Source of the DNA: an uncultured Opitutaceae bacterium
GTDB taxonomy: Bacteria; Verrucomicrobiota; Verrucomicrobiia; Opitutales; Opitutaceae
NCBI GenBank assembly: GCA_951813085.1
Contig: OX638348.1
Location: 3,481,627 to 3,545,626 of the forward strand
Reading direction: 5' to 3'
Length of the DNA stretch: 64,000 nt
Shown here: positions 1 to 18,008 of the stretch, in pieces
Layout: each line of letters starts with the position of its first letter
How positions within the stretch are numbered: the stretch's first letter is position 1
Notes under the pieces: generated by a model
Databases searched by the model: none
Told to the model about the DNA's origin: nothing
What the model saw: only the letters and a program-made list of their open reading frames with translations
Position numbers and translations under genes: made by a program

Positions 1-4
1 CCCA

Positions 5-508: not shown

Positions 509-706
509 GCTCGCAGTGCTTGGCTTTTAATGATACGTCGCCAATACCATCCTCTATTTCCGAAGCCGCCGTAGTTTGTCCAGAATAAGTAGGTCCCTTT
601 ACGCATGCCTGGAAACTGCGGGAAATTGAGTATACTGAACACATGCCAACGGTGCCGGTCGAGTGATAACGCAATCCCAATCCTCGCTGACTTACTCCGC
701 GACTAT

Positions 707-814
707 CGCCTAACTCGCCGTGCGATTCCGTCGCACAAACGATAGAAATTGCTCTTTGAATCAAGCGACTCCAGCTCAGCCAGAAACTAGAGGTTTCAAC
801 CTGACCTCGAGCGG
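707..814 (+). pseudogene. Fragment: duplicated 5' end of wzz
   Basis: Bases 707-814 align without gaps at a constant offset of 13,300 to 14007-14114, that is ~49 bases of leader plus the first ~20 codons of the wzz gene at 14056. By eye about 86 of 104 bases from 711 agree. The ATG of the intact start is TTG here (756-758). The reading LNQATPAQPET parallels MNQANPAQPET and then runs into a stop after about 34 codons. It is a relic of a second wzz locus or of a duplication, lying just downstream of the NusG-like gene. Confidence 0.75.
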
Positions 815-968
815 CTGGAAGATCCTCCACGACCACGCCTCCGCTCAGCCCGCTGAGTAGGTATCGACCAATTAGCTGCCAAGCCCGCAACCATCGCAAA
901 AGGCTGAGAGAATGCTGCCTCCGATTCCGGTCCAGACTCAAGCCAGCCCGGCGAATCGAGTCAACGCT

Positions 969-1260
969 CTAGTAAACGCTGAACAGCTTGAATTCAATAT
1001 CAGGGAAAATCGAATAGTGTTTTAGGTTGGATGAACACAAAGCCATCCCGTTTTCAGCTGCAGCCGCGGCAAACAAGGCGCCTCTCGCCCTCATTTCGTG
1101 TTCCACACTATATTTGATCGATGTAAACCGCGGCTCGATCCCCTATTTTTTTCGATAGCGGGATCGTTTGGAAATCAAAGTCCCTAAATAAATTCTTTGT
1201 AATGCATTGCTGTCTCTTCAAGGACGTGCACTGCATGAGTTCCAAGTACGTACGTAAAGA
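969..1260 (-). pseudogene. PIN-domain (VapC-like) toxin remnant
   Basis: Read on the minus strand, this stretch gives FQTIPLSKKIGDRAAVYIDQ and then, one frame over, GALFAAAAAENGMALCSSNLKHYSIFPDIEF before a stop at 969-971. That matches the C-terminal half of VapC PIN proteins (IPLTxxIADRAA..., DALIAATALENG..., TxNxKHF...IP.LE). The Asp expected before ALIAATA is Gly here, a frameshift lies near 1115, and no N-terminal half or antitoxin is visible. It is a dead toxin gene. The upstream limit is approximate. Confidence 0.5.
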
Positions 1261-1530
1261 TATGGAGCGTCGCCTCTCCTTTCCACCAACCGAGCAACCT
1301 TACCGATTCCGAAAACCCCTCTTCGGAGACGCAGTTACACGGATCCGACGATCAACAAGCTAAGTGGGACTTCAACCTGCCGACGATCATTGCAACACCT
1401 TCTTAATCGATTGTAGTGGGACGCCGGAAACTGGCCCCCCGCTTACGTTCAGCTAAATTGGACGCGTTGTGAATAAGCGTTTCTGCATTGAACTCATCTA
1501 ACGCTGCGAACCCTTTCCCAAGTCAGGTAA

Positions 1531-1558
1531 CTCATTTTGGTAACGTTACCAAAATGAG
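1531..1558. promoter_or_regulatory. Perfect 28-bp palindrome, operator-like (copy 1 of 4)
   Basis: A perfect inverted repeat centred between 1544 and 1545 with inner core TTTTGGTAACGTTACCAAAA. Related copies lie at 2428-2455, 13545-13572 and 13679-13706. This one is 29 bp beyond the stop of the PaaX-like gene. It has no loop and no T-tract, so it is a better operator than terminator. The AACGTT centre is also typical of LacI-family operators, so the cognate regulator is not settled. Confidence 0.65.
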
Positions 1559-1587
1559 CTACCGGGCTAAGAGCGCTCAATCTGATG

Positions 1588-2403
1588 TCAAGGATCCAAC
1601 TCTGAGATGAGGTGTTCGCTAAGATGCTTGAAGGTCACTTGTCTCTTGTTCCAAGCTATTTTGCCCAAGTATCCGGAAGGGAGTAGTTCTTCGGAAAGAA
1701 AGGGATCCATTTGAAATACCTGCTTCCAGCTCGCCGTTTCATTCCTCAACCAGCTCGCACGCTGATCGCTTATCTCAGCAACTTTATGTAAACTCGACTC
1801 GAGAAACGCTATGTGAATTTGGTACTGCTCGTTGATCTTATCGAAATCCCAAGCGGAAGACACATAGTCCTCGCTGCTGTGATGGCCCAAAGGAATGCAT
1901 TCTTGAAAGAGCACAGAGCTGGGCTTCACATTTATATTTCGCAATTCCACAGACCAATCGCTATAAGGTCGGTGCGAAATCCATACGCTCCCTTGAAGGT
2001 GACCAAATCTGTTTTTTCTAAGCCAAGAATCGAGGCGTCGCCGTTCTTTTCTAGCGTTCCGTGGAAGGTCAAACGTTAGCGTACGCCATTTACCATCCCA
2101 ATTCTTATTCCAAGACGCTTCTGGATCTATACTTCCCATCAGCGTTTCTTTGCCTAGCTCCGTTATTCTGAGAACCCAGGATTCGTCTTTCGATTTGCTG
2201 TCCCAATCGATCCAACCTTCCCCGCGCAGCTCGTTGAGATGCCGATCGAAGTTTTCCTCAGAAGTCCATCCAACAGCGTTTAGAAACGAGAGAGGCGGCC
2301 TCGCGGAGGCTTCAATCAAGTCCAATCCAGACATGAAGAGCAAATCGAGCAGAACTCTAGCCTTAGGACCCAGCCTCATGGTGTAGCTCCCAGTCGAAAC
2401 CAA
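1588..2403 (-). CDS. PaaX-like transcriptional regulator
   Basis: 271 residues. A winged-helix N-terminal region (about residues 9-90) precedes the PaaX core near residues 103-135 (WDGKWRTLTFDLPRNARKERRR, then KNRFGHLQGSVWISHRP), which in PaaX proteins forms a Cas2-like ferredoxin fold. PaaX itself represses phenylacetate catabolism; no paa genes occur here, so the effector is unknown. The gene follows the C39 exporter on the same strand. A palindrome lies 25-52 bp upstream of the start and another just past the stop, which suggests autoregulation. A start at residue 9 (MRLGPK) is a reasonable alternative. Confidence 0.75.
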   Translation of the reverse strand: MVSTGSYTMRLGPKARVLLDLLFMSGLDLIEASARPPLSFLNAVGWTSEENFDRHLNELRGEGWIDWDSKSKDESWVLRITELGKETLMGSIDPEASWNKNWDGKWRTLTFDLPRNARKERRRLDSWLRKNRFGHLQGSVWISHRPYSDWSVELRNINVKPSSVLFQECIPLGHHSSEDYVSSAWDFDKINEQYQIHIAFLESSLHKVAEISDQRASWLRNETASWKQVFQMDPFLSEELLPSGYLGKIAWNKRQVTFKHLSEHLISELDP

Positions 2404-2427
2404 CTAATGATTAGGATTCTCGAGCAA

Positions 2428-2455
2428 CTCATTTTGGCAACGTTACCAAAAATAG
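2428..2455. promoter_or_regulatory. Operator-like palindrome before the PaaX-like gene (copy 2 of 4)
   Basis: An imperfect version of the same 28-bp palindrome with core GGCAACGTTACC, in the 120-bp gap between the exporter stop and the regulator start. The spacing of ~25 bp to the start codon would overlap a promoter or 5' leader, so binding could repress the regulator. Regulator identity is inferred from position only. Confidence 0.6.
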
Positions 2456-2523
2456 CGGAAAATCGAAGTATTCTCGCTTTGTCCATAGTCTTGCGGTAGT
2501 TTGTAATCGGTAAACCCATACAT

Positions 2524-4722
2524 CTAGTCTGAGTCTACTTTGCCTTGCCCGCGGGGATGATTGGAGAGTGAAAACCTGGAATGGTTTTCCCACAGAGCTT
2601 GGAACTTTCCGTTTTTCTCCAACACCGAGTCTATCGGTCCGCTTTCCACTACCTTTCCCTCCTCCAACACTACAACGTTGTCAGCGTTAAGTATCGTTTC
2701 CAGTCGGTGGGCTACGATGATCACTGTCTTGCCCTGCATTCGTAGCATGTCCACGGCCTCGTAGGTCGCTCGTTCCGCCTTGCTGTCCAGGCTCGATGTT
2801 GCTTCGTCGAGAATTAGTATTTCCGGATCTCGATAGAGCGCGCGTGCGATGGCGATGCGTTGGCGTTGTCCGCCAGAGAGGGACAGACCACGTTCTCCGA
2901 GCAGAGTATCGAAACCATCTGGCAATCTCTCGATGAAATCAGATATACCAAGATTCTGGCAGATCCTCGAGATTTTTAAAATATCAGGGCGATCCAAACC
3001 AAGAGCTATGTTTTCCTTAACCGTTCCGCTAAACAAATCGATGTTCTGCGGCACGACTGATACGATTTCTCTAAGACTACTTGGGTCTACATACGACAAG
3101 TCATACTCGCCAACGACTATCTTACCTTCATCGATCGGATAAAGATTTTGCAAAATGGATACGAGTGTTGTTTTCCCAGATCCACTTTCACCAACTATCG
3201 CCGTCATTTTTCCGGCGGGAATCGTAAGATCTAGGCCGTTGAAAACGTTCGCTCGCGAACCATAGCGAAATGAAACGTTCTCGAAACGAATTTCTCCTAA
3301 GCGGGCTGGATCCATGTAGACCTCGCGGCTTTGGCTATCTCGTTGAATGTCCATTAATTCGAATAGTCGATCTGCCGCGATCAAGGCCCCCTGTACTGAA
3401 GCATTCGCTCCAATCAGCTTTTGAACGGGCCCCGTAAATCGTCCGGTAATAGCGTTGAATGCCAGGAGAGTGCCGGCGCTTAGTTCATTATTGAATACAT
3501 AGTAGCATCCAAAATACAGTATCGATATCGTGAATATCTGCGTAAGCATTCCAGTCGCTGAACTTGAAAAGAGTCCGAACTTCGTCGATTTGAATCCCGT
3601 CTTGAGAACTTTTATGAAAGCTCCTTCCGTTTTTTGACTGACCATTTTTTCTAAGCCAAATCGTTTAATCGTTTCCACTCCATTGATCGATTCAACGAGA
3701 TTAGATTCCAGATCTGCGGACTCCTCCATGATGGTTCTCAAATTCCGCTTGTTGAAACGATTCGTTATATAGTAGGAGAAAATATAGATTGGCAGTAGAC
3801 ACAAAATTATAAGCGTTAGCTTGACTGAATATAGAAACATTAGAGCGAGCCCAAAGAATAGCGTGAACAAACTTACAACCAGATCTGTCGCCACTTCATT
3901 GATGAACGAACGTATCTTTATAGCATCGCCAATCCTCGACATAATCTCGCCGACACGCATGGAGTCGAAAAATCGCTGTGGCAGAGTGAGCAAGTGTTTG
4001 TAATACCCCAATACGAGCCTCGCATCGATTTGCTGGGCAGTGGAAACCATGAAGAGCGATCGAATGACTCCGATGAAAGTCTGCAAAAGAATAAGAAACA
4101 GCATTCCCAAAGTAATAAGGTTCAACAAACCTGTGTTTCTACCTGGAAGCACATGATCAACGACCTTTTGCAAATAGACGGCCGAGGCTAATCCTAGTAC
4201 TACGGAGAGAATAGCCCCCACGAGGGACTGAAGCAGCACCGACTTGTGCGGCTCGATCAGAAACCAAAATCGCTTCCAGTTTGAAGCTTTAAAATTTCCC
4301 GAAATAAAATCGGCATTTGGAGCCAACAGAATCAAGGCCCCAGTCCAGATCTCCATAAACGCTTCTACCGGAACTTTGTTCATTTGTCCGGTTCCAGGGT
4401 CCATGTATACTACCGTATCCGCTTTTACTTTGTAGATCACTACATAGTGGTGCAAACCCCCGCTCAATATGACATGGGCAATTGCTGGCTTCGGTATCTT
4501 GAAGAGGCTGTCTTTCTCGCCTTTTACACCTTTCGCCGAGAAACCAAGTTCCTCGGCTGCTTCAATCATTCCTCGTATGTTCGTTCCCTTCCTGTCAGTA
4601 CTCGCTAGCTGCCTTATCCGAGTTACTGAGAGAGACAACTTGTAGTACTTTGCAACCGATCCTAAACAGGCGGATCCGCAATCGGTTATATCTCTTTGCC
4701 TGACGCAGTATCTCGACATCAT
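2524..4722 (-). CDS. C39-peptidase ABC transporter (bacteriocin-type exporter/processor)
   Basis: A peptidase-containing ABC transporter. The open frame reaches 4779, but an ATG pair at 4722/4719 (MMSRYCVRQRD) lies just past the stop of the HlyD gene and places the protease domain at the N-terminus as usual. Numbering from 4779: C39 Cys34 (ITDCGSAC) with Gln28, His111 (LHHYVV) and Asp127 (YMDPG); a six-helix export domain at about 180-470; Walker A GESGSGKTT 530-538; LSGGQ 634-638; Walker B ILILDE 654-659; H-loop His691. Such proteins cut Gly-Gly leaders and export the core through the inner membrane with an HlyD partner. Two Gly-Gly precursors lie upstream. All catalytic residues are present. 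Confidence 0.93.
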   Translation of the reverse strand: MMSRYCVRQRDITDCGSACLGSVAKYYKLSLSVTRIRQLASTDRKGTNIRGMIEAAEELGFSAKGVKGEKDSLFKIPKPAIAHVILSGGLHHYVVIYKVKADTVVYMDPGTGQMNKVPVEAFMEIWTGALILLAPNADFISGNFKASNWKRFWFLIEPHKSVLLQSLVGAILSVVLGLASAVYLQKVVDHVLPGRNTGLLNLITLGMLFLILLQTFIGVIRSLFMVSTAQQIDARLVLGYYKHLLTLPQRFFDSMRVGEIMSRIGDAIKIRSFINEVATDLVVSLFTLFFGLALMFLYSVKLTLIILCLLPIYIFSYYITNRFNKRNLRTIMEESADLESNLVESINGVETIKRFGLEKMVSQKTEGAFIKVLKTGFKSTKFGLFSSSATGMLTQIFTISILYFGCYYVFNNELSAGTLLAFNAITGRFTGPVQKLIGANASVQGALIAADRLFELMDIQRDSQSREVYMDPARLGEIRFENVSFRYGSRANVFNGLDLTIPAGKMTAIVGESGSGKTTLVSILQNLYPIDEGKIVVGEYDLSYVDPSSLREIVSVVPQNIDLFSGTVKENIALGLDRPDILKISRICQNLGISDFIERLPDGFDTLLGERGLSLSGGQRQRIAIARALYRDPEILILDEATSSLDSKAERATYEAVDMLRMQGKTVIIVAHRLETILNADNVVVLEEGKVVESGPIDSVLEKNGKFQALWENHSRFSLSNHPRGQGKVDSD

Positions 4723-4726
4723 TTCC

Positions 4727-5266
4727 CTACGCCCTACTAGTTGGCTCTCTCGATTGATAGGGACTGAACCAATCGTCAAGTTGATCTCTTAACAGCTGGA
4801 ACAATGTCCTCTCGGCAATTTCAAAACGCGCTGTAAAGGTGAGACCCTTTTTCAGATTGCCAATAGCCCCATTTTTCAAATGGAGTGATTCCGTCCCCAT
4901 CTCGCACAAGATTCGAAACATTGGCAAGCTGTTTACTATGTAAACGTCTTTAGAAATCTCTGATATCGTAGCCTCGACTTGCCCCCAATCGAGATGGTTA
5001 AATGCGTCTATTTGAAGAACAACTGGAGACTCGTAGTCGATCAAACCGACATCTTTGGTACTCACGAAAATCTCTGCCATCAAGTTCTCTCTGGGAGATA
5101 TTGTGGCTAAAATTTGGCCCGCTGATACAAAGCTGCCAATCGATAAAGTTTCAATTTGCTGAACGATTCCATCAGAAGGCGATGTAATGATAAAAAGCTC
5201 CTTCTCAATCTCCAACTGTTTAAGTTCATTATTCAGTTTATCGATTTGACGATTTGCTACGTGCAA
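4727..5266 (-). CDS. HlyD-family adaptor, C-terminal part (frameshifted)
   Basis: The second half of a membrane-fusion protein: end of a coiled coil (IDKLNNELKQLEIEKE), a second lipoyl half (SDGIVQQIE...GSFVSAGQILATI), and a beta-barrel/membrane-proximal region ending 4 bp before the exporter start. It is in a different frame from the N-terminal half. Adding one A to the A8 tract at 5284-5291 (minus sense) joins them smoothly through EEKKTKWETELHVANRQ. The apparent TTG start at 5266 is just an internal Leu codon of the full protein. It would link the C39 exporter to the outer membrane. Confidence 0.8.
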   Translation of the reverse strand: MHVANRQIDKLNNELKQLEIEKELFIITSPSDGIVQQIETLSIGSFVSAGQILATISPRENLMAEIFVSTKDVGLIDYESPVVLQIDAFNHLDWGQVEATISEISKDVYIVNSLPMFRILCEMGTESLHLKNGAIGNLKKGLTFTARFEIAERTLFQLLRDQLDDWFSPYQSREPTSRA

Positions 5267-5946
5267 TTCCGTTTCCCACTTGGTTTTTTTTCCTCAGAGG
5301 CGATTAATAGACTGTTACGTTTTTGTTCGAACTCTCGTTGGATTTTATGCATCTCTGCCAATGTCACGATTCCCTGCTCGTGCAAGGAGCTAGAGACCTT
5401 CACTTGGTGATCGTAATAATCGACTTGTTCTGCTAGCTCTATTTTCTCCCTACGCGCTTGAACATATTCAGATTGATATAGATTAGTTTTAAATATATAA
5501 CCATCTAATCCATTCGAAACATCCCCGTTGACCAATACTTCTAAGTCATCTTTTTCATTCTCAAGTGATTGCAGCATATCCTTATGCAATACTTCTTTTA
5601 TATTCAATTGAGGTGATTCAACTCGCGCCATGGGCTCGCCTTTCATCGCCACATCATTCTCTTCGAAATAGATATGGGCGATTTTTCCTGAAACCCCCGA
5701 AACTACAGTCGTGTTCGCTTGTTTAGATCGTATCAGACCTTTACTCTGAATGCTTACTGGCACTTGAATGAACGGCATGGCTGCGAGCATTAAGATCACC
5801 ACAGAAACAACCAGGATGTAGATAACCTGACTGCACACTCTGATCCTATCAGTGTACGATTCCGCAGTAAATTCTATAATCTCCTTGGGAAAGAGCGAAG
5901 TCTTAAAACTAGTTCTGTAGCGAAATGCGTTACTTCGAGGCATCAA
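5257..5946 (-). CDS. HlyD-family adaptor, N-terminal part (frameshifted)
   Basis: 230-codon frame with a short cytoplasmic tail, one membrane helix (about residues 41-60, VIYILVVSVVILMLAAM), a first lipoyl half near 77-110 (TTVVSGVSGKIAHIYFEENDV) and a long coiled-coil region to about residue 215. The frame then runs through an A8 tract (5284-5291) into EKKPSGKRNCT and stops. Its continuation is in the overlapping frame ending at 4727. The split may be a sequencing indel, a real mutation, or a site where polymerase slippage on A8 restores the frame. Adjacent to the C39 ABC gene, as in type I peptide secretion operons. Confidence 0.85.
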   Translation of the reverse strand: MMPRSNAFRYRTSFKTSLFPKEIIEFTAESYTDRIRVCSQVIYILVVSVVILMLAAMPFIQVPVSIQSKGLIRSKQANTTVVSGVSGKIAHIYFEENDVAMKGEPMARVESPQLNIKEVLHKDMLQSLENEKDDLEVLVNGDVSNGLDGYIFKTNLYQSEYVQARREKIELAEQVDYYDHQVKVSSSLHEQGIVTLAEMHKIQREFEQKRNSLLIASEEKKPSGKRNCT

Positions 5947-5997
5947 TCATGGGGTAACGATAAAGAATAATACTCTATTGGTGAATTGGATATCCAC

Positions 5998-6816
5998 TTA
6001 GATAGTATCAAAAAAGCGACTAGACTTGGGACTTTTGACTGTAGAATCTACTAAGGATTCCGTCACTCTTTGCGGGCAGTTCGATGTTTCAGCTGACAAG
6101 ACCGACATTCTGTTTAAACGATCCTTACATACCAGATACGCCATTTCCGCTTGATCCAGCAAATTCGAGGGTACAAAAACATCAGTATGTTTACTGGTTG
6201 TTTTTACTGTTCCATATCTAATATTATCAGACGGATCTCCATGCCACGCCAGACCTGTATTTTTGAAAAATGAATACTTAGGAGATAGAGGTTCCTTGAG
6301 ATTCAGCCAAATCGTCAACTGCTCAAGGAGTTGTGATGTATTCTCAACCAGACAATCAGACTCGATGAAAAAGAAGTTCCCGCGCAGCTTTTCAGCATAG
6401 GTTTGTAGCCATTGCATTGAGGCGCAGTAGTACTGACACACAGCCTCCGGATTAGTATGCCATTCAATCCTAGTTGATCGGCCCATCTTTATCAGGCTGC
6501 GAATGGAATCACTAGGATTTCTCAGCAGAAAGATCACTTTTGGCCGGTAAACCTCGAGCACGTTATCAGAAATCTCGCGATTGAAGAGCAATTTATCCAA
6601 CAGGTACTTGTTCCGCACCGAACCTCTATGCTCGCTCCATAGACTCGCGCGCAACGCGAACAGGCTCAACCAACCAGAGTAATTTCGATGCATCTCGCTG
6701 TAACCGCATATCTCGGAATTACTCCCAAGAATATGCGATAGAAGCGACGATCGACTTCTCATGTGAGATAGGACAAAAAGGTATTTTGATCCAAACAATG
6801 TTTTTGACGGGATCAT
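5998..6816 (-). CDS. Sulfotransferase-family protein in the peptide-export locus
   Basis: 272 residues. The N-terminus (YLFVLSHMRSRSSLLSHIL, about residues 12-30) has the position and shape of the 5'-phosphosulfate loop of PAPS sulfotransferases, and PKVIFLLRNPSDSIRSL (about 92-108) fits the 3'-phosphate-binding strand/helix with its RxP-S pattern. These enzymes move sulfate from PAPS to hydroxyl or amine groups. It lies between the precursor genes and the HlyD/C39 genes on the same strand, so it may modify the exported peptide, a carbohydrate, or another metabolite. Substrate is unknown. The sequence is more AT-rich than the housekeeping genes. Confidence 0.75.
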   Translation of the reverse strand: MIPSKTLFGSKYLFVLSHMRSRSSLLSHILGSNSEICGYSEMHRNYSGWLSLFALRASLWSEHRGSVRNKYLLDKLLFNREISDNVLEVYRPKVIFLLRNPSDSIRSLIKMGRSTRIEWHTNPEAVCQYYCASMQWLQTYAEKLRGNFFFIESDCLVENTSQLLEQLTIWLNLKEPLSPKYSFFKNTGLAWHGDPSDNIRYGTVKTTSKHTDVFVPSNLLDQAEMAYLVCKDRLNRMSVLSAETSNCPQRVTESLVDSTVKSPKSSRFFDTI

Positions 6817-7281
6817 CTCACTACGTGCACAATGGTCTACAAACCCAAATTATCTAAACTACTTTTTGCTACTTCAATGGACTATTTAAAAAAGCCTTAC
6901 GACTCCATATTTCTATTACCAAAAAACCCTGCATAGAACATAAGCCCTTGCTCAATCGCTGGAACAAACCAAATTCGGTTGTTTTTATCTACCGCTGCAG
7001 ACGTAATAATTACAACACCGATGAGGAAAATCACTATAAACTTGATTATTGCAGGAATCCAAAAATCTAATAAGGCCTACTGTTTCTATAAGCATCTCTC
7101 AAGTTGAAGATTAGACAAATATCAAAAAGAAGCAATAGATCTATTTTGTTCCTATCAACGAAACAAAAAGCGTAAACAAAGCTCTCTTCTATTTGTATTG
7201 TAATACTCTACTCTAGCGAGTCCAAAACTCGCTATATTATATGTATATAAACATATAAGGAACAATATTTCTTTGTTTTCC
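6817..7281. other. AT-rich stretch between sulfotransferase and small membrane gene
   Basis: 465 bp of AT-rich DNA. The only protein-like signal is the small hydrophobic frame at 6897-7076 listed separately. Bases 7081-7281 show no convincing gene, promoter or terminator beyond A/T-rich composition. Confidence 0.45.
6897..7076 (-). pseudogene. Small two-helix membrane frame without a proper start
   Basis: A minus-strand open frame of 59 codons reads LDFWIPAIIKFIVIFLIGVV..., then a polar link, then a second hydrophobic stretch (GLMFYAGFFG). Layout and some positions (aromatic-W-[IV]-P-x-II at the start, a second helix ending in FFG or GFF) resemble the 60-residue protein at 7282-7464. A stop (7077-7079) precedes it directly and there is no ATG; the first possible start is a GTG at 7034. 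It is probably a third, decayed copy of the immunity-like protein, or a gene whose start is hidden by an indel. Confidence 0.35.
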
Positions 7282-7464
7282 CTAAGACTTACGACTCTTG
7301 CGTGATTGAAAGAATCCGAATACTCCAATAAAGAATGCTAGAGGCGTTATCATAGCGTGCAATTTCCAGAGGAAGTGGTTTGAGTCTATTGTCATCATCA
7401 CACAAATTCCGGTTATTCCGACGATTATTGGGGGCACCCAATAGTATTTTGATATTTTTTCCAT
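7282..7464 (-). CDS. Small two-helix membrane protein, putative immunity protein
   Basis: 60 residues, starting MEKISKYYWVPP, with two hydrophobic segments (about 11-27 and 38-52) and a basic tail (QSRKSRKS). It lies 102 bp downstream of precursor A1 on the same strand. The other precursor has a similar two-helix 59-residue protein in the same relative place (8335-8514). Small basic membrane proteins beside double-glycine peptide genes are commonly self-protection factors; that role is inferred from position and shape only. The competing frame at 7289-7471 lacks the helix pattern. Confidence 0.55.
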   Translation of the reverse strand: MEKISKYYWVPPIIVGITGICVMMTIDSNHFLWKLHAMITPLAFFIGVFGFFQSRKSRKS

Positions 7465-7566
7465 AGCCCAATTAAACTAAAAATCGCTCAAAAACATATC
7501 AACTGCATTAATAGGAAGATTTTAATGCGCTATTGAAACAATGGTCTCTGAATATTGATTTCAAGT

Positions 7567-7869
7567 TCATTCGTCAACTATTGTTCCATCATTAAAGTGG
7601 CTCATGATACCAATAGCACTCAAACCTGCTCCACTAACACTTGCAGCTAAGCCTATAACTGACAATGCAGTTCCAGTAGTTGCTGAAGCACCAATAAGCC
7701 CAGCTCCTATGGCCAAACCAATCCCTCCCGTAGCGACTCCAACCGCTCCAATTGCAAGTCCCGCAACTGCCAGACCAAGTCCAGTAGTCCATTCTCCTCC
7801 CGCAATCTCCAGCTCTTCATCAAAAGACAGAGAGACTACACCGATATCATTTATATTTATAGTATTCAT
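7567..7869 (-). CDS. Double-glycine leader peptide precursor A1 (cysteine-free core)
   Basis: 100 residues. The leader MNTININDIGVVSLS continues FDEELEIAGG, matching the C39 leader pattern (Leu at -12, Ser -11, Glu -8, Ile -4, Gly-Gly at -2/-1). Cleavage after Gly25 would release a 75-residue core starting EWTTG, dominated by Gly, Ala, Val, Leu and Ile with small-residue repeats and a polar tail (HFNDGTIVDE). There is no Cys or Tyr in the core, so thioether rings are impossible. It resembles pore-forming unmodified bacteriocins in composition. The C39 exporter, HlyD, LanC-like and sulfotransferase genes share the strand. The leader is almost identical to that of A2. Confidence 0.8.
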   Translation of the reverse strand: MNTININDIGVVSLSFDEELEIAGGEWTTGLGLAVAGLAIGAVGVATGGIGLAIGAGLIGASATTGTALSVIGLAASVSGAGLSAIGIMSHFNDGTIVDE

Positions 7870-7950
7870 ATTTTATGTTTATTGTTTTAGGTTAACGATT
7901 ATAAATTCTATTTACTACAAAGCAGCCCATTCTCCATGGCTTCCTTAATT
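7825..7950. repeat. Direct repeat copy 1: precursor start plus copied 3' end of the LanC-like gene
   Basis: Bases 7825-7950 repeat 8822-8940 almost exactly, apart from a ~7-bp insertion near 7878. The copy covers the start of the precursor leader, its upstream region, and a second copy of the last ~13 codons of the LanC-like gene (IKEAMENGLLCSK then stop, at 7903-7950). Similarity fades beyond ~7985. This shows that the precursor cassette was duplicated together with the tail of the gene upstream of it. Confidence 0.85.
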
Positions 7951-8064
7951 AGCTCAATGTTGATTTGGGCAGTATTTCGTCAACCAACCTTTTCCATCCT
8001 TTGATTCGACTCTAGCTGAAAACTTGACATTAGTTGCTAGGCACCAATTTATTCCAACGCTCAT

Positions 8065-8334
8065 CCAAATGCGAGTATCGCTGTTATAGTATATCTAGCC
8101 ACTTAAAATTTTATTACTAGTGATTTCTACATGATTTTTCTGAAGTTAGATTTTGCAGACTCTTTTGTTCTGAGCTATTATGAACATGTGCTGGAACACA
8201 TAGTACCTCTCTTGGACTTATGTATTAGAAATAATTGTGAATGAATGCACGATTATCCAGTTACGATATAGCCCATGCAGCAAGATGCTGCATCCAGATG
8301 GACAGTTCAACAGTCAAAAAACTTAATATTTATT
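8065..8334. other. Non-coding AT-rich spacer between duplicated precursor cassettes
   Basis: 270 bp of AT-rich sequence between the small membrane gene of cassette 2 and the duplicated segment upstream of precursor A1. I see no gene, repeat or clear hairpin. A promoter for precursor A1 could lie here, but no convincing -35/-10 pair stands out. Confidence 0.35.
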
Positions 8335-8514
8335 TTAACTTATCTTAGATCTGCTTTTTTGTACAACAACAATTAGAAGTGCAAAAAATATGACTGAAGC
8401 AGTTAACCTAATATACATAGTATACTGACCATCGAACATCGGATTTATAGCAACTAAAAATAGTCCGACTAATGACAGTTTTTGCCCTGTACTAATTTTA
8501 ATTTTTTTATTCAT
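8335..8514 (-). CDS. Small two-helix membrane protein, putative immunity protein
   Basis: 59 residues from an ATG at 8514 (MNKKIKISTGQKLSL...), with two hydrophobic helices (about 13-24 and 39-52) and a basic end (QKSRSKIS). It lies 94 bp downstream of precursor A2 on the same strand, just as the 60-residue two-helix protein sits below precursor A1. Size, charge pattern and position suggest the pairs are precursor plus self-protection protein. Function is inferred; no family is recognised. Codon use is AT-rich, like the neighbouring small genes. Confidence 0.5.
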   Translation of the reverse strand: MNKKIKISTGQKLSLVGLFLVAINPMFDGQYTMYIRLTASVIFFALLIVVVQKSRSKIS

Positions 8515-8608
8515 ATTCTAGAATACTCAGATTTGATACATTAAGTGTAGGAGAAAGAATCACGACAATACCCAATAGATAGGGATATTTTAACAAACTT
8601 GCAAACAG

Positions 8609-8866
8609 TTATTCTCCGAACAACTGTAATGCATAGAGGGCAAGAGCATGCCCACCAGCAGATATACCTAGAGCGCCAGCGTAGGTACTCACCGGTTCAG
8701 GAGCTAAGACTCCTACGACACCCGCGACTACACCAACTCCTCCGAGAACAGCCCCCGCAAATCCAGCCCAACCTCCAGCCGATTCCCAGCTCCCTCCATT
8801 TATTGAAAATTCATCATCAATAGACAGAGAGACGACACCGATATCATTTATATTTATTGTATTCAT
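8609..8866 (-). CDS. Double-glycine leader peptide precursor A2 (cysteine-free core)
   Basis: 85 residues. The first 15 residues are identical to precursor A1 (MNTININDIGVVSLS), continuing IDDEFSINGG, so the leader fits the C39 Gly-Gly pattern. The predicted core of 60 residues after Gly25 starts SWESAGGW and is rich in Gly, Ala and Val, with two Tyr, one Pro-Glu-Pro and no Cys. Cores of A1 and A2 differ strongly while leaders are conserved, as expected for paralogous substrates of one exporter. It lies 31 bp below the LanC-like gene, probably in the same transcript. Confidence 0.8.
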   Translation of the reverse strand: MNTININDIGVVSLSIDDEFSINGGSWESAGGWAGFAGAVLGGVGVVAGVVGVLAPEPVSTYAGALGISAGGHALALYALQLFGE

Positions 8867-8940
8867 ATTTTATGTTTTAGGTTAACGATTATAAATTCTA
8901 TTTACTACAAAGCAGCCCATTCTCCATGGCTTCCTTAATT
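8822..8940. repeat. Direct repeat copy 2: precursor start plus 3' end of the LanC-like gene
   Basis: The intact partner of the repeat at 7825-7950. Here it spans the first codons of precursor A2, the 31-bp spacer and the true 3' end of the LanC-like gene, so this copy is the likely parent and 7825-7950 the derived one. Confidence 0.85.
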
Positions 8941-10946
8941 TGCTCGAATGTTGTTTTGAGCACCTTTGCGCGTTCTGCTTCATTTTTGGGAGAGAGTTGA
9001 TTTAAGATTTTTTTGATCACCGTCTTAGGTTTGTTCGGTTTCTCGAAACCAGATAGCACAAGATAGTTAAATAGAGGCAACTGAGCCTCGAATACTCCGT
9101 AGGGGCGCTGATGAAGCAGGTAGTAAGTCGTCTCTTCTTGATAAATGAGTGCTCGATTTTCGTTCCGAGACCATCGGTAGTCGCTTTTTCGAATACGAGC
9201 CTCCGTGGACATTTGGAGTTTTTTCCCAAGAATTTTCTTCTCATTCGCTGTTTCAAGAAAAGTCCTATTGATCTCTTTGTCGTACTCTAGCTTTAACCCC
9301 AAATACCGGTCACCCCTTGGGCAAAAATCGAGCTCCTGCCGTAATTTTTCGATCAGATAAGTGTCATTGAAAACCTTATTCTCATCAGCATTCAGATCAT
9401 CGTTTTGGTGCCCTTCACAGATTGAGCGAAATCGTTCTATTATTAAATTTTCGCTACCAAAACTTTCTAGATTTTTTTCAAACGCGTTGACATTGAAATT
9501 CATTAACAGCTTTGAAGTTCTCGGATATACGGATATCAAAGATCTCCTAACGGTATGCTGTTTGGAAACCGCGAGCTCTCTTGAGGTATCAGAATGAAGA
9601 CCTTCTTTGCTATTGATGACGGGCGCGAGCAGTGAAAAATCCGTTTTCTCTTCAGAGAGTTTGAGCAGAAAATAGCCGATTCCAGCACTCCCGGTAGGGA
9701 ACCCCAAATCTTCTCCATCTTCAATAGCTTTCAAATTCGATCGATAGAATCCAATATCCTGACTTTGTTTGAGAGCCAACCCACCGATTTTATCCGCGAA
9801 CTCTCGGTAAGAAAAATCCCTCGTTCTACCGAAAATTCCAAGGCACGCCATTCCTACACCCCCCAATCCTGCTACAAGCGAAAAATCTGCTGATTCGAAA
9901 TTAGAAAGCGCTGATTCGATCTCTCGGCCAATTTGAATCTTCGCTCTTTCGATATCATCTAAGCACGCATCAGTTCCAGCTACCTCGCTACAAGCCGACC
10001 TGGAAAGCGCGATCCCTGAAACGCCACTTGACCAAGAAGCGCTTTGACCGAATTTTGAGAAAATGGCATCATCGACCTTCTTTAAAGCCTGTCTAATCTT
10101 CTTTGGAAGACTCGCAATATCATCTAGGGTCCAAGTTGAATAGGACAAATCCGGCCAATAACCTTCATTATCAGGCAAGAAAGAATTCTCGTATCGCATC
10201 CCCTGGCCTACTAGCCACTCAAACGATTCAAATGGAACCAGTTTATAGGCTTGGGCCAATGCAAACAGGATACCCGACGTCCCTGAAATGAAACCGATCG
10301 GAGGGCGAATGGTTTCACCCATTCTGTCCCAGTAGATTCCATCCGAGGCAAGTCTACCGCGAGATGCAATCAGTCGAATTAGTTTTGATGAAAGCTCCCG
10401 AACCTCTTCGTCCTGCGTCTTGTCGAGCACTCGAAGCGAAGCAAGCAATACGCCTGCAACGCCACCACCGATACTATATGTAATTGGAATATCAGGACTG
10501 TTTTCGTCGAAAAAGGACCGACTGCATTTAATTGAGAGGAGCCGTGCTTTTTCGAGCGCTCCGGAATCTCGGGTCGCTTCAAAAAGAGCTAGATAAGCTT
10601 CAACGGCTCCGCATTGACCAAACCAGAGAGTCCTGGTGCCTTGGTTCGTTTTGCTGCACTCGTTTTCTAGCCAATCGATCGCTCTGACAGCCCCTTCAAG
10701 TAGATTTGTATTAGCGGTTTTCCTATAAGCTTCGCAAAGAAAGACCGAAATTCCCGCATTCCCAGAGGCAAGCGTGATATTTGGCTGACGGACAATTCGA
10801 TCCTTGGAATAGGCCCCGCTGATACTAGGCCAGCACAGGCCCTTCGATGTAATGATCGCTCGAGAAAGCAGTCGCTCTGCTAACGATTCGGCTTCAGCCA
10901 AATAGGGGTTAAAAACAACGGGTTCAGCCATTCTTTTCGGCTTCAC
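8898..10946 (-). CDS. LanC-like alpha/alpha-toroid protein lacking zinc ligands, with extra C-terminal domain
   Basis: 682 residues. Residues 1-430 show LanC-type repeats: SGNAG (61-65), GGGVAG (160-165), GFISGTSG (218-225), SWSSGVSG (304-311), GLGGVG (360-365) and GFPTGSAG (415-422). In true cyclases the fourth and fifth repeats carry the zinc ligands (WCYG/WCHG and CHG); here they read WSSG and VAG, so no zinc site remains. That agrees with the cysteine-free precursors next door. Residues ~460-682 form an extra domain whose end (LPLFNYLVLSG...EQIKEAMENGLL) resembles a PqqD/RRE-like winged helix; this is a guess. It heads the minus-strand locus. Likely a substrate-binding or non-canonical modifying protein rather than a cyclase. 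Confidence 0.75.
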   Translation of the reverse strand: MKPKRMAEPVVFNPYLAEAESLAERLLSRAIITSKGLCWPSISGAYSKDRIVRQPNITLASGNAGISVFLCEAYRKTANTNLLEGAVRAIDWLENECSKTNQGTRTLWFGQCGAVEAYLALFEATRDSGALEKARLLSIKCSRSFFDENSPDIPITYSIGGGVAGVLLASLRVLDKTQDEEVRELSSKLIRLIASRGRLASDGIYWDRMGETIRPPIGFISGTSGILFALAQAYKLVPFESFEWLVGQGMRYENSFLPDNEGYWPDLSYSTWTLDDIASLPKKIRQALKKVDDAIFSKFGQSASWSSGVSGIALSRSACSEVAGTDACLDDIERAKIQIGREIESALSNFESADFSLVAGLGGVGMACLGIFGRTRDFSYREFADKIGGLALKQSQDIGFYRSNLKAIEDGEDLGFPTGSAGIGYFLLKLSEEKTDFSLLAPVINSKEGLHSDTSRELAVSKQHTVRRSLISVYPRTSKLLMNFNVNAFEKNLESFGSENLIIERFRSICEGHQNDDLNADENKVFNDTYLIEKLRQELDFCPRGDRYLGLKLEYDKEINRTFLETANEKKILGKKLQMSTEARIRKSDYRWSRNENRALIYQEETTYYLLHQRPYGVFEAQLPLFNYLVLSGFEKPNKPKTVIKKILNQLSPKNEAERAKVLKTTFEQIKEAMENGLLCSK

Positions 10947-11163
10947 GCGAGGAGTACAAGAGTTGGGGAAGGGTAATACCTTGAGTAGGTCCAGCTAGTA
11001 AACGAGGGTCAAGATAAATTTTAAAAGTTTTTAGTTACTTTACCTTTAGTAGATTTTATTTTTGGTTCTCCGTATAAACAGTAAATAGTCTTCCCTCATC
11101 TAGCATACCCCATCAGTAAATATTCGCATTCTGATTGTTTCTACTTGCAATCAAGACCTGTCC

Positions 11164-12120
11164 ATGACCGCTAAACCCTATAGCGTTGGCCCCGCTTTTA
11201 TTGGAATCGGCGCCCAAAAAGCTGGAACGACCTGGCTCTATTCTCAACTTTGCCAACATCCAAATATCTGGATGCCTCCAATCAAGGAGCTTCACTACTT
11301 CGATCGGTCACCGCAGTACGCTTCACCTAGCGGACTCGATACTTCATCGGCTTTTCGAAGACTTAGGAGTAGAGACCCCTATCATCGTCACCAGTCTAGC
11401 AAGATTGTTCGTTCGCTCCCTGGCTATATTGTTTCCGGAAACCAAAAGATGTTGAAATGGAGCCTCCGTTGGCTCCTCGGGAACTGCGATGATCGTTGGT
11501 ACCAATCGCTTTTTGATCTTAGAATTCCAGGGCTTATATCAGGTGAGATCACGCCCGCCTACTCGATTTTAAATACCGATGATATCGAGTGGATGAGCCG
11601 GCTGTGTCCCTCAGCCAAAATAGTTCTCTTCGTCAGAGAACCCGTAGATCGAGCTTGGTCCGCAATGCGGTTCTACAAAAAAATTGGCCGATACCGCGGT
11701 GAACTCGACTGTGTGAGCAATGCGCTAGCCGTACTCTCCGACGAGGAACATCGCAGGCGTGGAGACTACGCGAGCATCATAGAGAATTTCACTCGTTTCT
11801 TCCGCCCCAATCAGATTCTAATCTGCTTCTATGACTGCATCAAGGACAAGCCGAAGCAGCTCCTAGCCGAAATCTTTTCCTTTCTTGGCGTTCCTGCTGT
11901 TCCTAGCGACGAGCGCCAGCTATTTACCAAGCGGAACGTATCGCCTCCTCACAACATGCCTTTGGAGGTCCGTGATTGGCTCGTGGATACGTACAAGCCA
12001 TCAATCGAGAGGCTAGCGACAAAGTATGGCGGGTATTTCACGTATTGGTACGAGAACTTGGGTCGAGAGCATTCCCGGCTCAACGCCGACTCAGACTTTC
12101 CTGCGGCTATCAATCCATAA
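11164..12120 (+). CDS. PAPS-dependent sulfotransferase (Sulfotransfer_1-like)
   Basis: 318 residues. FIGIGAQKAGTTWLYSQL near residues 12-29 is the 5'-phosphosulfate loop (QKAGTTWL), followed by the usual HPNI..P.KELHYFD segment; AKIVLFVREPVDRAWSAM (about 156-173) is the 3'-phosphate site. The layout matches carbohydrate sulfotransferases of the heparan/NDST type. It is transcribed away from the LanC-like gene and followed at 18 bp by a glycosyltransferase, so it probably sulfates a glycoconjugate or polysaccharide; the acceptor is not known. It is unrelated in detail to the sulfotransferase at 5998. Confidence 0.85.
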   Translation: MTAKPYSVGPAFIGIGAQKAGTTWLYSQLCQHPNIWMPPIKELHYFDRSPQYASPSGLDTSSAFRRLRSRDPYHRHQSSKIVRSLPGYIVSGNQKMLKWSLRWLLGNCDDRWYQSLFDLRIPGLISGEITPAYSILNTDDIEWMSRLCPSAKIVLFVREPVDRAWSAMRFYKKIGRYRGELDCVSNALAVLSDEEHRRRGDYASIIENFTRFFRPNQILICFYDCIKDKPKQLLAEIFSFLGVPAVPSDERQLFTKRNVSPPHNMPLEVRDWLVDTYKPSIERLATKYGGYFTYWYENLGREHSRLNADSDFPAAINP

Positions 12121-12138
12121 AGATTGCAACTACAAGAG

Positions 12139-13527: not shown

Positions 13528-13544
13528 CGGCTGCGACAAAACAA

Positions 13545-13572
13545 CTCATTTCGGTAACGTTACCAAAAACAG
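13545..13572. promoter_or_regulatory. Operator-like palindrome (copy 3 of 4)
   Basis: Same 28-bp motif as at 1531, with core CGGTAACGTTACCA and an outer AACT...AGTT extension. It begins 17 bp after the glycosyltransferase stop and about 485 bp before wzz. Three mismatched pairs, the core intact. Confidence 0.6.
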
Positions 13573-13678
13573 TTGGATGATTGAGGGAGTGGCCAGCACG
13601 ATTTTGAGTAAACAAACTTGGGGAAGCGTGACAACGTCTAGAAATTGGCTCTTGGTTCGCGATCAACCTAGCAGGACA

Positions 13679-13706
13679 CTCTTTTTGGTAACGTTACCGA
13701 AATGAG
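13679..13706. promoter_or_regulatory. Operator-like palindrome (copy 4 of 4)
   Basis: Same motif with core TTTTGGTAACGTTACCGAAA, about 350 bp upstream of wzz. Two sites 134 bp apart would suit DNA looping or cooperative binding by one dimeric regulator. Confidence 0.6.
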
Positions 13707-14055
13707 TTGTAAAATTGGAGGAGACTCTAGTTTGAGGGACGGTTTTGGTGGGATAGTGGCAAATTCGATCAGCGATCCTTGATTTATGCGACTAGGAATC
13801 GAGGCACCCATATTGGTTCGCTCCAGGTTTCCCTTAGCGGGGCATCAGCTCTAGCCTATTTGTTTTGCGAATGATTCGAAATCAATTGATTTGCGATCTC
13901 CAAGGGCGATGCTACTCTGTTCAACTCATTCGATAAGCAGTCTTTTTACATTCGTTCACGTAAACTTGAGCCGATTAGCTACGACCAGTAGATTTTTGCT
14001 CCCAGTCGCTTAACTTGCGTCTCGATTTCGTCGTACAACCGATAGCAATTGCTCT

Positions 14056-15114
14056 ATGAATCAAGCGAATCCAGCTCAGCCAGAAACAGGAGGTCTCAAT
14101 CTGACCCCCAGCGACATCTATTTTATCATCTTCCGCCACAAGGCGAAGATACTCCTATTCATACTTCTGGGCCTTGTTTCCGGAGCTACGGTTTACAAGC
14201 AATGGCCTGAAACCTTCATTTCCAGCGCCCAACCGCTAGTTCGCTATGTCACTGAAAAAAGAGATGTCGTGGACTCCGAGCAAGATACGCGTGTAACGTC
14301 AGCTGGAGGACGAGGCAGCGAGTATATCCTCCAAACCGAAATCGCCATTCTCAACAGCCTCGATTTGGCAGAAGACGTCGCTAAGTCAGTCGGTCCAGAA
14401 ATGCTCGTCCCTGAACCACCGGAAAACAGTAATGCACCTCTAGCCACAATCGCAGCGGGTGTCGTAGCAGGCGGGATTGAGACAGAAGCAAGGTCGAATG
14501 TCATAACAGTAACGTTTACGCATTCAGATCCAACCATCCCTCAGCCCGTACTGAAATCTGTAATTGATACGTATATCGAAAAACATGTTCGAATACATCG
14601 AAGCGCAGGGGGGACGTTCGACGACTATCTGACCCAACAAACAGTTCAACTAAAGTCTAAGCTCAATCAAGCTGAAAACGAACTCCTTAACGCTCCCAAA
14701 AAGGCCGGCGTAATGGATATTGCGGAAGCAAAGACAACTCTCTCAACAGAAATGGCTCGTATCCAGCGAACTATTCTCGAGGCTGAAGTTGAGCTCGCTG
14801 AAAACCTGACTTCGATCGATGAAATTCAATCCACCGGATCATCAGGAAACTCGAATGTTGAACCCAATCCTAACGCAGACGCAGAAGACTCCACATTTGA
14901 AATAGACACCGAACTCGCAGATGCTGTAGAAGAGTATGAAAATACGAGGACTGCTTTAGAAATACTGCGCTCTCGAGAGCGAGAGCTCCTTTTGAGCTAC
15001 ACGGGAGTCAACCGTTTGGTAAAAGGAGTTCGAGAGCAGATTCAGGATTCCGAGAACATACTCACACAAATTGAGGAGCATTTTCCTGAAGTCAACCAGC
15101 CTAGGATAGGCTAG
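14056..15114 (+). CDS. wzz: Wzz/GumC-type polysaccharide co-polymerase, N-terminal part (frameshifted)
   Basis: 352 codons: a Wzz domain with first membrane helix near residues 32-50 (AKILLFILLGLVSGATVY), then a long periplasmic region rich in coiled coil (HPDVQ-type end FPEVNQPRIG). It stops at 15112-15114, while a protein-like frame, displaced by one base, continues from 15105 to the second membrane helix. Wzz/GumC proteins set chain length of exported polysaccharide in the inner membrane. The ATG is supported by the duplicated copy at 756. A CpsD-like ATPase follows. Confidence 0.85.
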   Translation: MNQANPAQPETGGLNLTPSDIYFIIFRHKAKILLFILLGLVSGATVYKQWPETFISSAQPLVRYVTEKRDVVDSEQDTRVTSAGGRGSEYILQTEIAILNSLDLAEDVAKSVGPEMLVPEPPENSNAPLATIAAGVVAGGIETEARSNVITVTFTHSDPTIPQPVLKSVIDTYIEKHVRIHRSAGGTFDDYLTQQTVQLKSKLNQAENELLNAPKKAGVMDIAEAKTTLSTEMARIQRTILEAEVELAENLTSIDEIQSTGSSGNSNVEPNPNADAEDSTFEIDTELADAVEEYENTRTALEILRSRERELLLSYTGVNRLVKGVREQIQDSENILTQIEEHFPEVNQPRIG

Positions 15115-15611: not shown

Positions 15612-15647
15612 ACGTTTCGCGAACTCTATAGACGCTCTTCAATCCGG

Positions 15648-17940: not shown

Positions 17941-18008
17941 ATTGTATTGATCCTATCTTCGTAATGGTCGTTTATTTATAACCTCTATATAACAAGTAAG
18001 TGGCGCTA

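What the first reader, a model, noticed from the sequence alone, without database searches (positions are those of the whole stretch)
2524..10946. Candidate undescribed peptide system: cysteine-free Gly-Gly precursors with a zinc-less LanC-like protein, a sulfotransferase and a C39 exporter
Seen: on one strand lie a LanC-like protein without the zinc ligands, two precursors sharing a C39-type leader but with Cys-free cores, small two-helix proteins, a sulfotransferase, HlyD and a full C39 ABC exporter. No LanB/LanM dehydratase, radical SAM or YcaO is present. Known: true LanC enzymes need zinc and Cys to make thioether rings. Inference: this is not a lanthipeptide locus but a different peptide modification or export system in which the LanC fold has a new role.
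Basis: partly seen in the sequence, partly recalled or inferred. Interest (0 to 1): 0.85.

Follow-up and report, generated by a model that had tools for sequence, protein, structure and literature searches.

The report
Zinc-free LanC-like secreted peptide system
A rare bacterial gene set makes small, greasy secreted peptides together with a protein that looks like a ring-forming antibiotic enzyme but has lost its metal site, and with a sulfate-adding enzyme; a second genome from another family carries the same set, which suggests an old enzyme fold has taken a new job.

Summary
On one strand lie a LanC-like protein (8898-10946), two Gly-Gly precursors with Cys-free cores, two small membrane proteins, a sulfotransferase, a HlyD gene (split by a frame break) and a C39 exporter. 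The zinc ligands and active-site His are lost in 3 of 3 family members found, window included. A genome of another family in the same order (G856) has the full-length LanC-like protein (58% identical), directly followed by a precursor with the same kind of leader and a small membrane protein. Elsewhere it has sulfotransferase, HlyD and C39 exporter in the window's order (66%, 43-63%, 73.5% identical). In 384 sampled class genomes, strong sulfotransferase matches occur only in the two genomes with the full-length LanC-like protein. So the set is real, though unlinked in G856. Best reading: the LanC fold is a metal-free, leader-guided carrier for hydrophobic bacteriocin-like peptides, some sulfated (compare RaxX/RaxST), then cleaved and exported. 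By the tests made it is not a lanthipeptide locus, but zinc loss alone does not prove that, since class III cyclases are metal-free. New variant of a known kind; function untested.

The parts
8898..10946 (-). LanC-like protein (682 aa, GTG start; open frame to 10994), zinc ligands lost; C-terminal ~230 aa extension of unknown family
8609..8866 (-). precursor 1: 25-aa Gly-Gly leader + 60-aa core, 0 Cys, 2 Tyr
8335..8514 (-). small membrane protein 1 (59 aa), possible immunity protein
   Evidence: 23-25% identical to its positional counterpart in G856
7567..7869 (-). precursor 2: 25-aa Gly-Gly leader + 75-aa core, 0 Cys, 0 Tyr
7282..7464 (-). small membrane protein 2 (60 aa), possible immunity protein
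6897..7034 (-). possible third small ORF (45 aa, GTG), doubtful
   Evidence: no segment passes the hydropathy cut
5998..6816 (-). sulfotransferase (Sulfotransfer_3), 65-66% identical to the G856 protein
5257..5946 (-). HlyD adaptor, N-terminal piece (frame-broken)
4727..5266 (-). HlyD adaptor, C-terminal piece (frame-broken)
2524..4779 (-). C39 peptidase-containing ABC exporter, the only C39 match in this genome; 73.5% identical to one of the two in G856
8811..8962 (.). copy A of a direct repeat (159 aligned columns): 3' end of the LanC-like gene + intergenic + first part of leader 1
   Evidence: 90.6% identical to copy B
7814..7971 (.). copy B of the direct repeat, carrying the first part of leader 2 and a LanC 3'-end fragment
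1588..2403 (-). PaaX-type regulator downstream of the exporter; palindromic sites on both sides
   Evidence: PaaX_M 3.8e-15
706..813 (.). left copy of a 108-bp direct repeat bracketing the ~13.2-kb probable insert
   Evidence: 83% identical to 14006-14113
14006..14113 (.). right copy of the direct repeat (5' end of the exopolysaccharide chain-length gene)

Best explanation
A two-module system for making and exporting hydrophobic Gly-Gly-leader peptides. Shown: the LanC-like protein, a precursor with a conserved leader and a small membrane protein form one conserved unit; sulfotransferase, HlyD and C39 exporter form a second; both occur in two genomes of different families. Inferred: the LanC-like protein is a non-catalytic (or at least metal-free) partner. 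Its LanC toroid, a fold that in lanthipeptide enzymes receives the precursor, holds the hydrophobic core, and its conserved C-terminal domain, possibly a leader-binding domain related to HvfC/DUF2063, grips the N-terminal leader motif (MNxINIxxIGVVxLS). The bound precursor is offered to the sulfotransferase, which would sulfate Tyr where there is one (precursor 1, G856 precursor) and perhaps not precursor 2. The C39 domain then cuts after Gly-Gly and the ABC-HlyD-TolC-type channel exports the core, which acts on membranes of competing bacteria; the small membrane proteins protect the producer.
For: 3 of 3 family members (window, G856, G010) lack all zinc ligands and the active-site His, while 5 of 7 comparison LanC-domain proteins from the same phylum keep Cys at the ligand positions. 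G856: full-length homologue 58% identical (C-terminal part 52-54%), next gene a precursor; 11 of the first 15 leader residues are identical in all three precursors; next gene a small membrane protein. Sulfotransferase, HlyD and C39 exporter are conserved in the same order (66%, 43% and 63% by HlyD piece, 73.5%). The sulfotransferase profile gives strong matches (572 and 630 bits) only in G000 and G856 of 384 class genomes, the same two that have the full-length LanC-like protein (the two samples have equal tallies and I took them as the same). Given G000, the chance that the second genome coincides is about 1 in 383. Between the two genomes 94, 244 and 311 codons differ synonymously in sulfotransferase, LanC-like gene and exporter, with dN 0.28, 0.33 and 0.20; dS was returned as not computable, which I read as saturated, hence purifying selection. 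Cores are 33-43% Gly+Ala with 0, 0 and 1 basic residues. Same order of sulfotransferase, adaptor and C39 exporter as raxST-raxA-raxB (PMC6637879, passages).
Against: No biochemical evidence. Only two genomes carry the full set, and in G856 the halves are unlinked (4.6 kb beyond the small membrane protein and about 2.6 kb upstream of the sulfotransferase show no other part). G010 has a zinc-less relative (27-29% identical, no C-terminal domain) and no C39 match in its 94%-complete genome, so the LanC-like protein can exist without this exporter. Precursor 2 has no Tyr. The HvfC/DUF2063 likeness is weak: hhalign probability 1.5%, E 0.033, 2 of 100 column-shuffled controls as good; four unrelated or only partly overlapping profiles scored up to 18.8 against 20.8; hmmsearch listed only G856 of 3 proteins (E 0.057). 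Pfam's best match to the G856 C-terminal part is another family, PF24409 wHTH-PRTase associated (0.0012, 19.2 bits against a cut-off of 27). DUF2063-type RREs have no clear leader motif in PMC12710340 (passages). Both structure models were too poor to use. The small membrane proteins are hardly similar (23-25%) and dN is about equal to dS in the one pair tested. The frame-broken HlyD may mean the window's copy no longer works. No composition control was made for the GxxxG-type motif counts.
Confidence: 0.42

Rival explanations
1. The LanC-like protein is an active metal-independent enzyme (as class III LanKC cyclases are) that modifies the cores in another way, for example by dehydration-free crosslinking, lactone formation or an acyl transfer.
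For: Class III cyclases lack the same ligands and work (PMC10604976, passages). The protein is under purifying selection. The G856 core has one Cys.
Against: Precursors 1 and 2 have no core Cys. No LanM, LanKC or LanL elsewhere in the genome (one search finds one LanC domain), so no supplier of dehydro residues of those classes; LanB and class V were not searched. The active-site His is also lost.
Confidence: 0.13
2. It is an ordinary Gly-Gly bacteriocin locus, and the LanC-like gene is a leftover of a LanM lanthipeptide locus or is there by accident.
For: Gly-Gly leaders, C39 exporter, HlyD and hydrophobic cores are the usual class II bacteriocin/microcin parts (the comparison is recalled). 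The best NCBIfam match of the LanC-like protein is LanM.
Against: The LanC-like protein is 58% conserved over its whole length between two families, including a C-terminal part that the LanM profile lacks, and sits directly before the precursor in both.
Confidence: 0.15
3. A RaxX-like secreted signal: the exported peptide is a sulfated signalling or host-interaction peptide, not a bacteriocin.
For: Order sulfotransferase-HlyD-C39 as in raxSTAB; the G856 core ends in a Tyr-rich tail (GYTGYEIWKYYFVE); Gly-Gly leader as in RaxX (PMC6637879, passages).
Against: Cores are long, hydrophobic and Gly/Ala-rich, and precursor 2 has no Tyr. Small membrane proteins after the precursors suggest immunity. 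The RaxX and RaxST sequences themselves were not compared.
Confidence: 0.17
4. The LanC-like protein and the sulfotransferase act on polysaccharide: the locus sits inside an exopolysaccharide region and both are carbohydrate enzymes.
For: NusG-like and chain-length/BY-kinase genes flank the probable insert. Distant sulfotransferase relatives sit in polysaccharide loci: 2 of the 4 plasmid records were looked at and both do, and the G818 match lies between export and glycosyltransferase-like genes. The G856 LanC-like protein also passes Pfam's cut-off for a GH127 barrel (1.4e-9); the window's does not (21.9 bits against 24.9). PMC10352776 (passages) suggests that zinc-less Bacteroidales LanC proteins resemble endoglucanases.
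Against: In G856 no polysaccharide gene was recognised beside either module, though most neighbours there were judged by eye only, while precursor and exporter persist. LANC_like scores 102.8 bits against 37.9 for GH127.
Confidence: 0.13

Closest known systems
Xanthomonas raxX-raxSTAB (sulfated Gly-Gly peptide RaxX)
   Same: Gly-Gly leader peptide, sulfotransferase, adaptor and C39-type exporter in the order ST-A-B (PMC6637879, passages)
   Different: The four-gene rax cluster as described has no LanC-like protein and no small membrane proteins; RaxX is a 60-residue precursor sulfated at Tyr-41, whereas here the cores are Gly/Ala-rich and precursor 2 has no Tyr
LanM (class II lanthipeptide synthetase), cyclase part
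   Same: Best NCBIfam match of the N-terminal ~450 residues; Gly-Gly leader and C39 exporter are usual for class II (recalled)
   Different: No dehydratase half, no zinc ligands, no active-site His, Cys-free cores in the window, extra C-terminal domain
Class III LanKC metal-independent cyclase
   Same: Zinc ligands replaced (PMC10604976, passages)
   Different: No kinase or lyase domains; no Cys in the window's cores
Zinc-less LanC-like proteins of Bacteroidales RiPP-like loci
   Same: LanC domain without the C/C/H triad and without LanB (PMC10352776, passages)
   Different: Those lie with radical SAM enzymes or CAZymes; none is described with a sulfotransferase and C39 exporter in the passages seen
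Gly-Gly leader class II bacteriocins/microcins (recalled)
   Same: Leader, C39/HlyD export, small hydrophobic cores, a small membrane protein after each precursor
   Different: A dedicated LanC-like protein and a sulfotransferase; no core matched a Pfam or NCBIfam family above cut-off

Membership tests
Lanthipeptide (classes I, II, IV) | LanC cyclase with Cys/Cys/His (or Cys3) zinc ligands | tested here: not met
   W-C-x-G and C-(H/C)-G motifs replaced by WSSG/WSNG/WGTG and VA/AS/LY in 3 of 3 family members
Lanthipeptide (classes II-IV) | dehydratase in the same protein or genome | tested here: not met
   The LanC-like protein has no dehydratase half; the genome has one LanC domain only
Lanthipeptide (classes I and V) | separate LanB, or LanK/LanY, dehydratase | not tested
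   None among the ten ORFs; no genome-wide search made
Lanthipeptide (all) | Cys in the core | tested here: not met
   0 Cys in precursors 1 and 2; but 1 Cys in the G856 precursor
Class III lanthipeptide (metal-free cyclase) | LanKC with lyase and kinase domains | tested here: not met
   Only the cyclase region matches (73.5 bits against a cut-off of 575)
Rax-type sulfated peptide system | sulfotransferase-adaptor-C39 exporter gene order with a Gly-Gly precursor | tested here: met
   window 5998-6816, 4727-5946, 2524-4779; G856 L038 same order, precursor elsewhere in that genome
Rax-type sulfated peptide system | sequence relation to RaxX and RaxST | not tested
   no Rax sequence was fetched
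Rax-type sulfated peptide system | acceptor Tyr in every core | tested here: inconclusive
   2, 0 and 4 Tyr in the three cores
Rax-type sulfated peptide system | Tyr sulfation of the precursor | not testable with these tools
   needs an enzyme assay or mass spectrometry
Gly-Gly leader bacteriocin/microcin | Gly-Gly leader with dedicated C39 exporter | tested here: met
   in G856 exporter and precursor are at different loci
Gly-Gly leader bacteriocin/microcin | antibacterial activity and immunity | not testable with these tools
   no core or small protein reaches a family cut-off
HvfC/DUF2063 leader-binding partner (C-terminal domain of the LanC-like protein) | sequence match to the family | tested here: inconclusive
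   no PF09836 match listed; hhalign E 0.033, 2 of 100 shuffled controls as good; two collinear local matches in G856, none listed for the window protein

The most novel reading that the evidence does not exclude
A new class of modified-peptide pathway in which a LanC toroid that has lost its catalytic metal is fused to a leader-binding domain and works as a carrier that keeps membrane-active peptides soluble and presents them to a sulfotransferase and a C39 exporter: a LanC pseudoenzyme with a chaperone role.
Probability: 0.3. Interest if true: 0.8.

Novelty: new variant of a known kind. Interest (0 to 1): 0.6.

Why it matters
The role of LanC proteins outside lanthipeptide making is open (recalled). 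Here a metal-less LanC-like protein is tied by gene order in two families to a specific precursor, and by co-occurrence to a sulfotransferase and exporter, so a concrete substrate can be tested. If it holds, it adds a LanC-dependent, possibly sulfated peptide type that ring-based genome mining could misread as a broken lanthipeptide cluster.

Tried and rejected
Neither was used, and no fold search was made.

C-terminal domain as PqqD/HvfC-like: tested with Pfam, NCBIfam, a PDB profile search and hhalign against eight DUF2063 proteins. It stays a hint. Other weak matches of the C-terminal part: PF24409 0.0012 and PF04084 0.13 (G856, Pfam), NF047654 0.024 (window) and NF041207 0.061 (G856, NCBIfam), one PDB chain at 0.013 (9h74, an initiation factor); none reaches a cut-off where one is given. 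In one search one of the eight DUF2063 proteins (L046) was read in the wrong frame; it was corrected. The script stopped with an error in its second (global) control, so only the local control of 100 shuffles exists (mean 12.3, sd 2.5, maximum 22.2, real 20.8; reversed alignment 12.0). Global hhalign aligned only 5-8 columns. Four other profiles against the same HvfC alignment scored 8.7-18.8 (two of them contain the C-terminal part), and the C-terminal part against DUF692 scored 15.5.

Empty-site comparison: the chain-length gene of five genus mates is only 32-36% identical. I fetched three of the five; in two of the three a NusG-like gene lies about 5 kb upstream with other genes between, so no clean empty site was found.

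Wider searches: LanC-like protein in 150 and then 252 family genomes (4 and 6 matches at E<=0.001), 387 phylum genomes (2), 384 class genomes (6) and 8 genomes of G856's family (1, G856 itself); PF05147 in 387 phylum genomes (5, of which 4 over the cut-off). These samples overlap. Genome contigs found only L018, identical in its LanC-like protein to G010; viral contigs none; plasmids 9 records with LanM/LanC-type proteins at 21-26% identity; the C-terminal part alone none in plasmids. Rfam found nothing in window 1-20000. Weak LanC hits in G119, G127, G090, G582, G615, G837 and G643 were not counted as family members: I looked at loci of five of these seven (G119, G090, G582, G615, G643), which have LanM-type frames with Cys ligands or, in G119, a W-S-H-G motif; G127 and G837 were judged from the hit table alone. 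G455 was not looked at.

Full report
What is there. The minus strand from 10946 down to 2524 carries, in order, a LanC-like gene, precursor 1, a small membrane protein, precursor 2, a second small membrane protein, a sulfotransferase, a HlyD adaptor in two frames, and a C39 ABC exporter. The LanC-like protein has 682 residues. Residues 73-451 (numbered from the open frame, 16 residues longer) match Pfam LANC_like (2.7e-26), and its best NCBIfam match is the cyclase part of LanM (8.2e-38, positions 546-931 of 932, far below the family cut-off). It is the only LanC domain found in the 4.85-Mb genome and the exporter is the only C39 match there. The window genome is in the same family as G010, whose LanC-like protein is the same as that of a record titled Verrucomicrobia bacterium WAS_Bin_16.

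Zinc site. In an alignment of three family members with seven other LanC-domain proteins from the same phylum, the first ligand (W-C-x-G) is Ser, Ser and Gly, the adjacent pair (C-H or C-C) is Val-Ala, Ala-Ser and Leu-Tyr, and the active-site His of GFxHG is Ser, Thr and Gln in window, G856 and G010. Five of the seven comparison proteins keep Cys at these places; two (L014, L016) have W-S-H-G and C-T and were not studied further. The loss is thus a family trait. It does not by itself rule out catalysis, because class III cyclases are active without these ligands (PMC10604976, passages).

Does the set recur? Relatives are very rare. With a two-sequence profile, 6 of 252 genomes of the window's family matched at E<=0.001, of which only G000 and G010 are clear members. 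In 384 genomes of the class 6 matched, and one new genome, G856 from another family of the same order, has the full-length protein (691 aa, 58% identical). A single-sequence search of 387 phylum genomes gave 2 matches, G000 and a weak one in G119. In G856 the next gene is an 82-aa precursor with the leader MNGINISEIGVVALSQSEEYDIAGG, and the next a 58-aa protein with two hydrophobic segments, the same order as in the window. Of the first 15 leader residues 11 are identical in all three precursors; of the ten before the cleavage site, four. That pattern fits a binding motif at the far end of the leader, separate from the C39 site (inference from three sequences, two of which share a DNA duplication over the first part of the leader).

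G856 has two C39 exporters. One sits in a sulfotransferase-HlyD-C39 module with the window's gene order: 66% (sulfotransferase), 43% and 63% (the two HlyD pieces) and 73.5% (exporter) identity. No precursor or LanC-like gene was seen near it in the stretch read. So the two modules are unlinked there. In a 384-genome class sample the sulfotransferase profile matched 3 genomes: G856 (630 bits), G000 (572 bits) and weakly G818 (70.8 bits, beside export and glycosyltransferase-like genes). The two strong ones are exactly the two with the full-length LanC-like protein. The samples show equal tallies (384 genomes, 332 of high quality, 171 genera), and I took them as the same. Taking G000 as given, since it was chosen for this set, the chance that the second genome coincides is about 1 in 383 (2 in 383 if G818 counts). 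G010, with the divergent LanC-like protein that lacks the C-terminal domain, has no C39 match in its 94%-complete genome; its contig ends 77 bases after that gene, so precursors cannot be judged.

Selection and origin. Between window and G856, dN is 0.28 (sulfotransferase), 0.33 (LanC-like) and 0.20 (exporter); dS was returned as not computable, which I read as saturated; 94, 244 and 311 codons differ synonymously. These are selected genes in both lineages. Precursor 1 against 2 gives dN 0.43 and dS 1.50; precursor 1 against G856 dN 0.59 with dS not computable. The small membrane proteins are only 23-25% identical, and for the pair tested (small protein 1 against G856) dN and dS are about equal (1.03 and 1.13), so their link rests on position and hydrophobicity, not sequence. 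In the window a repeat of 159 aligned columns (90.6%) copies the end of the LanC-like gene, the gap and the first part of the leader between the two precursor genes. One precursor was thus fitted with a copied leader, while the cores differ.

Mechanism. The cores (60, 75 and 57 residues) are 43, 41 and 33% Gly+Ala, with 0, 0 and 1 basic residues and 15, 18 and 12 small-xxx-small motifs (no composition control), the look of membrane-inserting bacteriocin helices (recalled knowledge). Such cores would be prone to aggregate in the cell (inference). The simplest role for a metal-less LanC toroid beside them is to bind and hold them, guided by the leader. The conserved C-terminal ~230 residues (52-54% identical) reach no family cut-off; Pfam's nearest for the G856 copy is a winged-helix model, PF24409 (0.0012, below cut-off). 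A collinear but weak likeness to HvfC/DUF2063 was found (hhalign E 0.033, 2 of 100 shuffled controls as good). DUF2063 proteins are listed among RRE-bearing proteins, though without a clear leader motif (PMC12710340, passages). I treat this as a lead. The sulfotransferase stands where RaxST stands in raxSTAB (PMC6637879, passages). Precursor 1 and the G856 precursor have 2 and 4 core Tyr, precursor 2 none, so sulfation may be selective, or its target may not be Tyr.

Setting. The set lies in a ~13.2-kb stretch between a NusG-like gene (5-508) and a chain-length/BY-kinase gene (14056 on). It is bracketed by an 83% identical 108-bp repeat of that gene's 5' end (706-813 and 14006-14113). Its middle is AT-rich: 37-43% G+C in the five kilobases 5001-10000, against 44-61% in the other fifteen kilobases of 1-20000. 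A PaaX-type regulator (1588-2403) follows the exporter. A palindrome GGTAACGTTACC occurs in the whole genome only at 1539, 13553 and 13687, with a one-mismatch copy at 2436 (window search). This suggests an acquired island with its own regulator (inference). The HlyD frame break and a frame break plus stop in the BY-kinase gene may be sequence errors or decay; unbroken frames exist in relatives.

Literature. No paper describing this set was seen in the listings (13 of 14 listed; 12 of 33; 10 of 10; 3 of 3; 0; 12 of 25; 4 of 4; 10 of 67) of the open library; subscription journals are mostly not held. Zinc-less LanC proteins in RiPP-like loci are known from Bacteroidales (PMC10352776, passages). 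Passages were also seen of PMC11251773; the other papers appear only as search listings.

Verdict. Real, rare and conserved; not a lanthipeptide locus by the tests made; works most like a Rax-type sulfated Gly-Gly peptide system with bacteriocin-like cores and an added LanC pseudoenzyme. The role of that protein is the open and testable part.

Noticed in passing
window 1539, 2436, 13553, 13687: Palindrome CTCATTTTGGTAACGTTACCAAAATGAG-like; the exact core GGTAACGTTACC occurs in the genome only in this locus; likely operators of the adjacent PaaX-type regulator. Not present in three genus-mate stretches around the chain-length gene.
   Followed up: partly
window 706-813 and 14006-14113: 108-bp direct repeat (83%) of the chain-length gene's 5' end bracketing ~13.2 kb: probable insertion boundaries.
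   Followed up: partly
window 14056-16445: Chain-length/BY-kinase exopolysaccharide gene is broken by a frame change and an in-frame stop, while five genus mates have open frames of 792-819 codons.
   Followed up: partly
window 4727-5946: HlyD adaptor gene split into two frames; one intact 408-aa frame in G856.
   Followed up: partly
window 11164-13527 (+): A second sulfotransferase and a UDP-glycosyltransferase-like gene on the opposite strand, divergent from the LanC-like gene; could belong to the island or to the polysaccharide locus.
   Followed up: no
L018 8641-9705: A 354-aa gene with no Pfam match at E<=0.01 (glycosyltransferase-like by eye) lies divergently beside the G010 zinc-less LanC-like gene.
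   Followed up: no
L037 1972-9001 (G856): A second C39 exporter locus in G856 (28% identical to the window's exporter) with two large ABC-type frames; a neighbouring frame at 1972-3327 contains a stretch that looks, by eye and recall, like a nitrile-hydratase-type (NHLP) leader.
   Followed up: no
L014, L016: LanC-domain proteins of 403 and 395 aa with W-S-H-G and C-T in place of the zinc motifs: perhaps another non-canonical LanC group.
   Followed up: no
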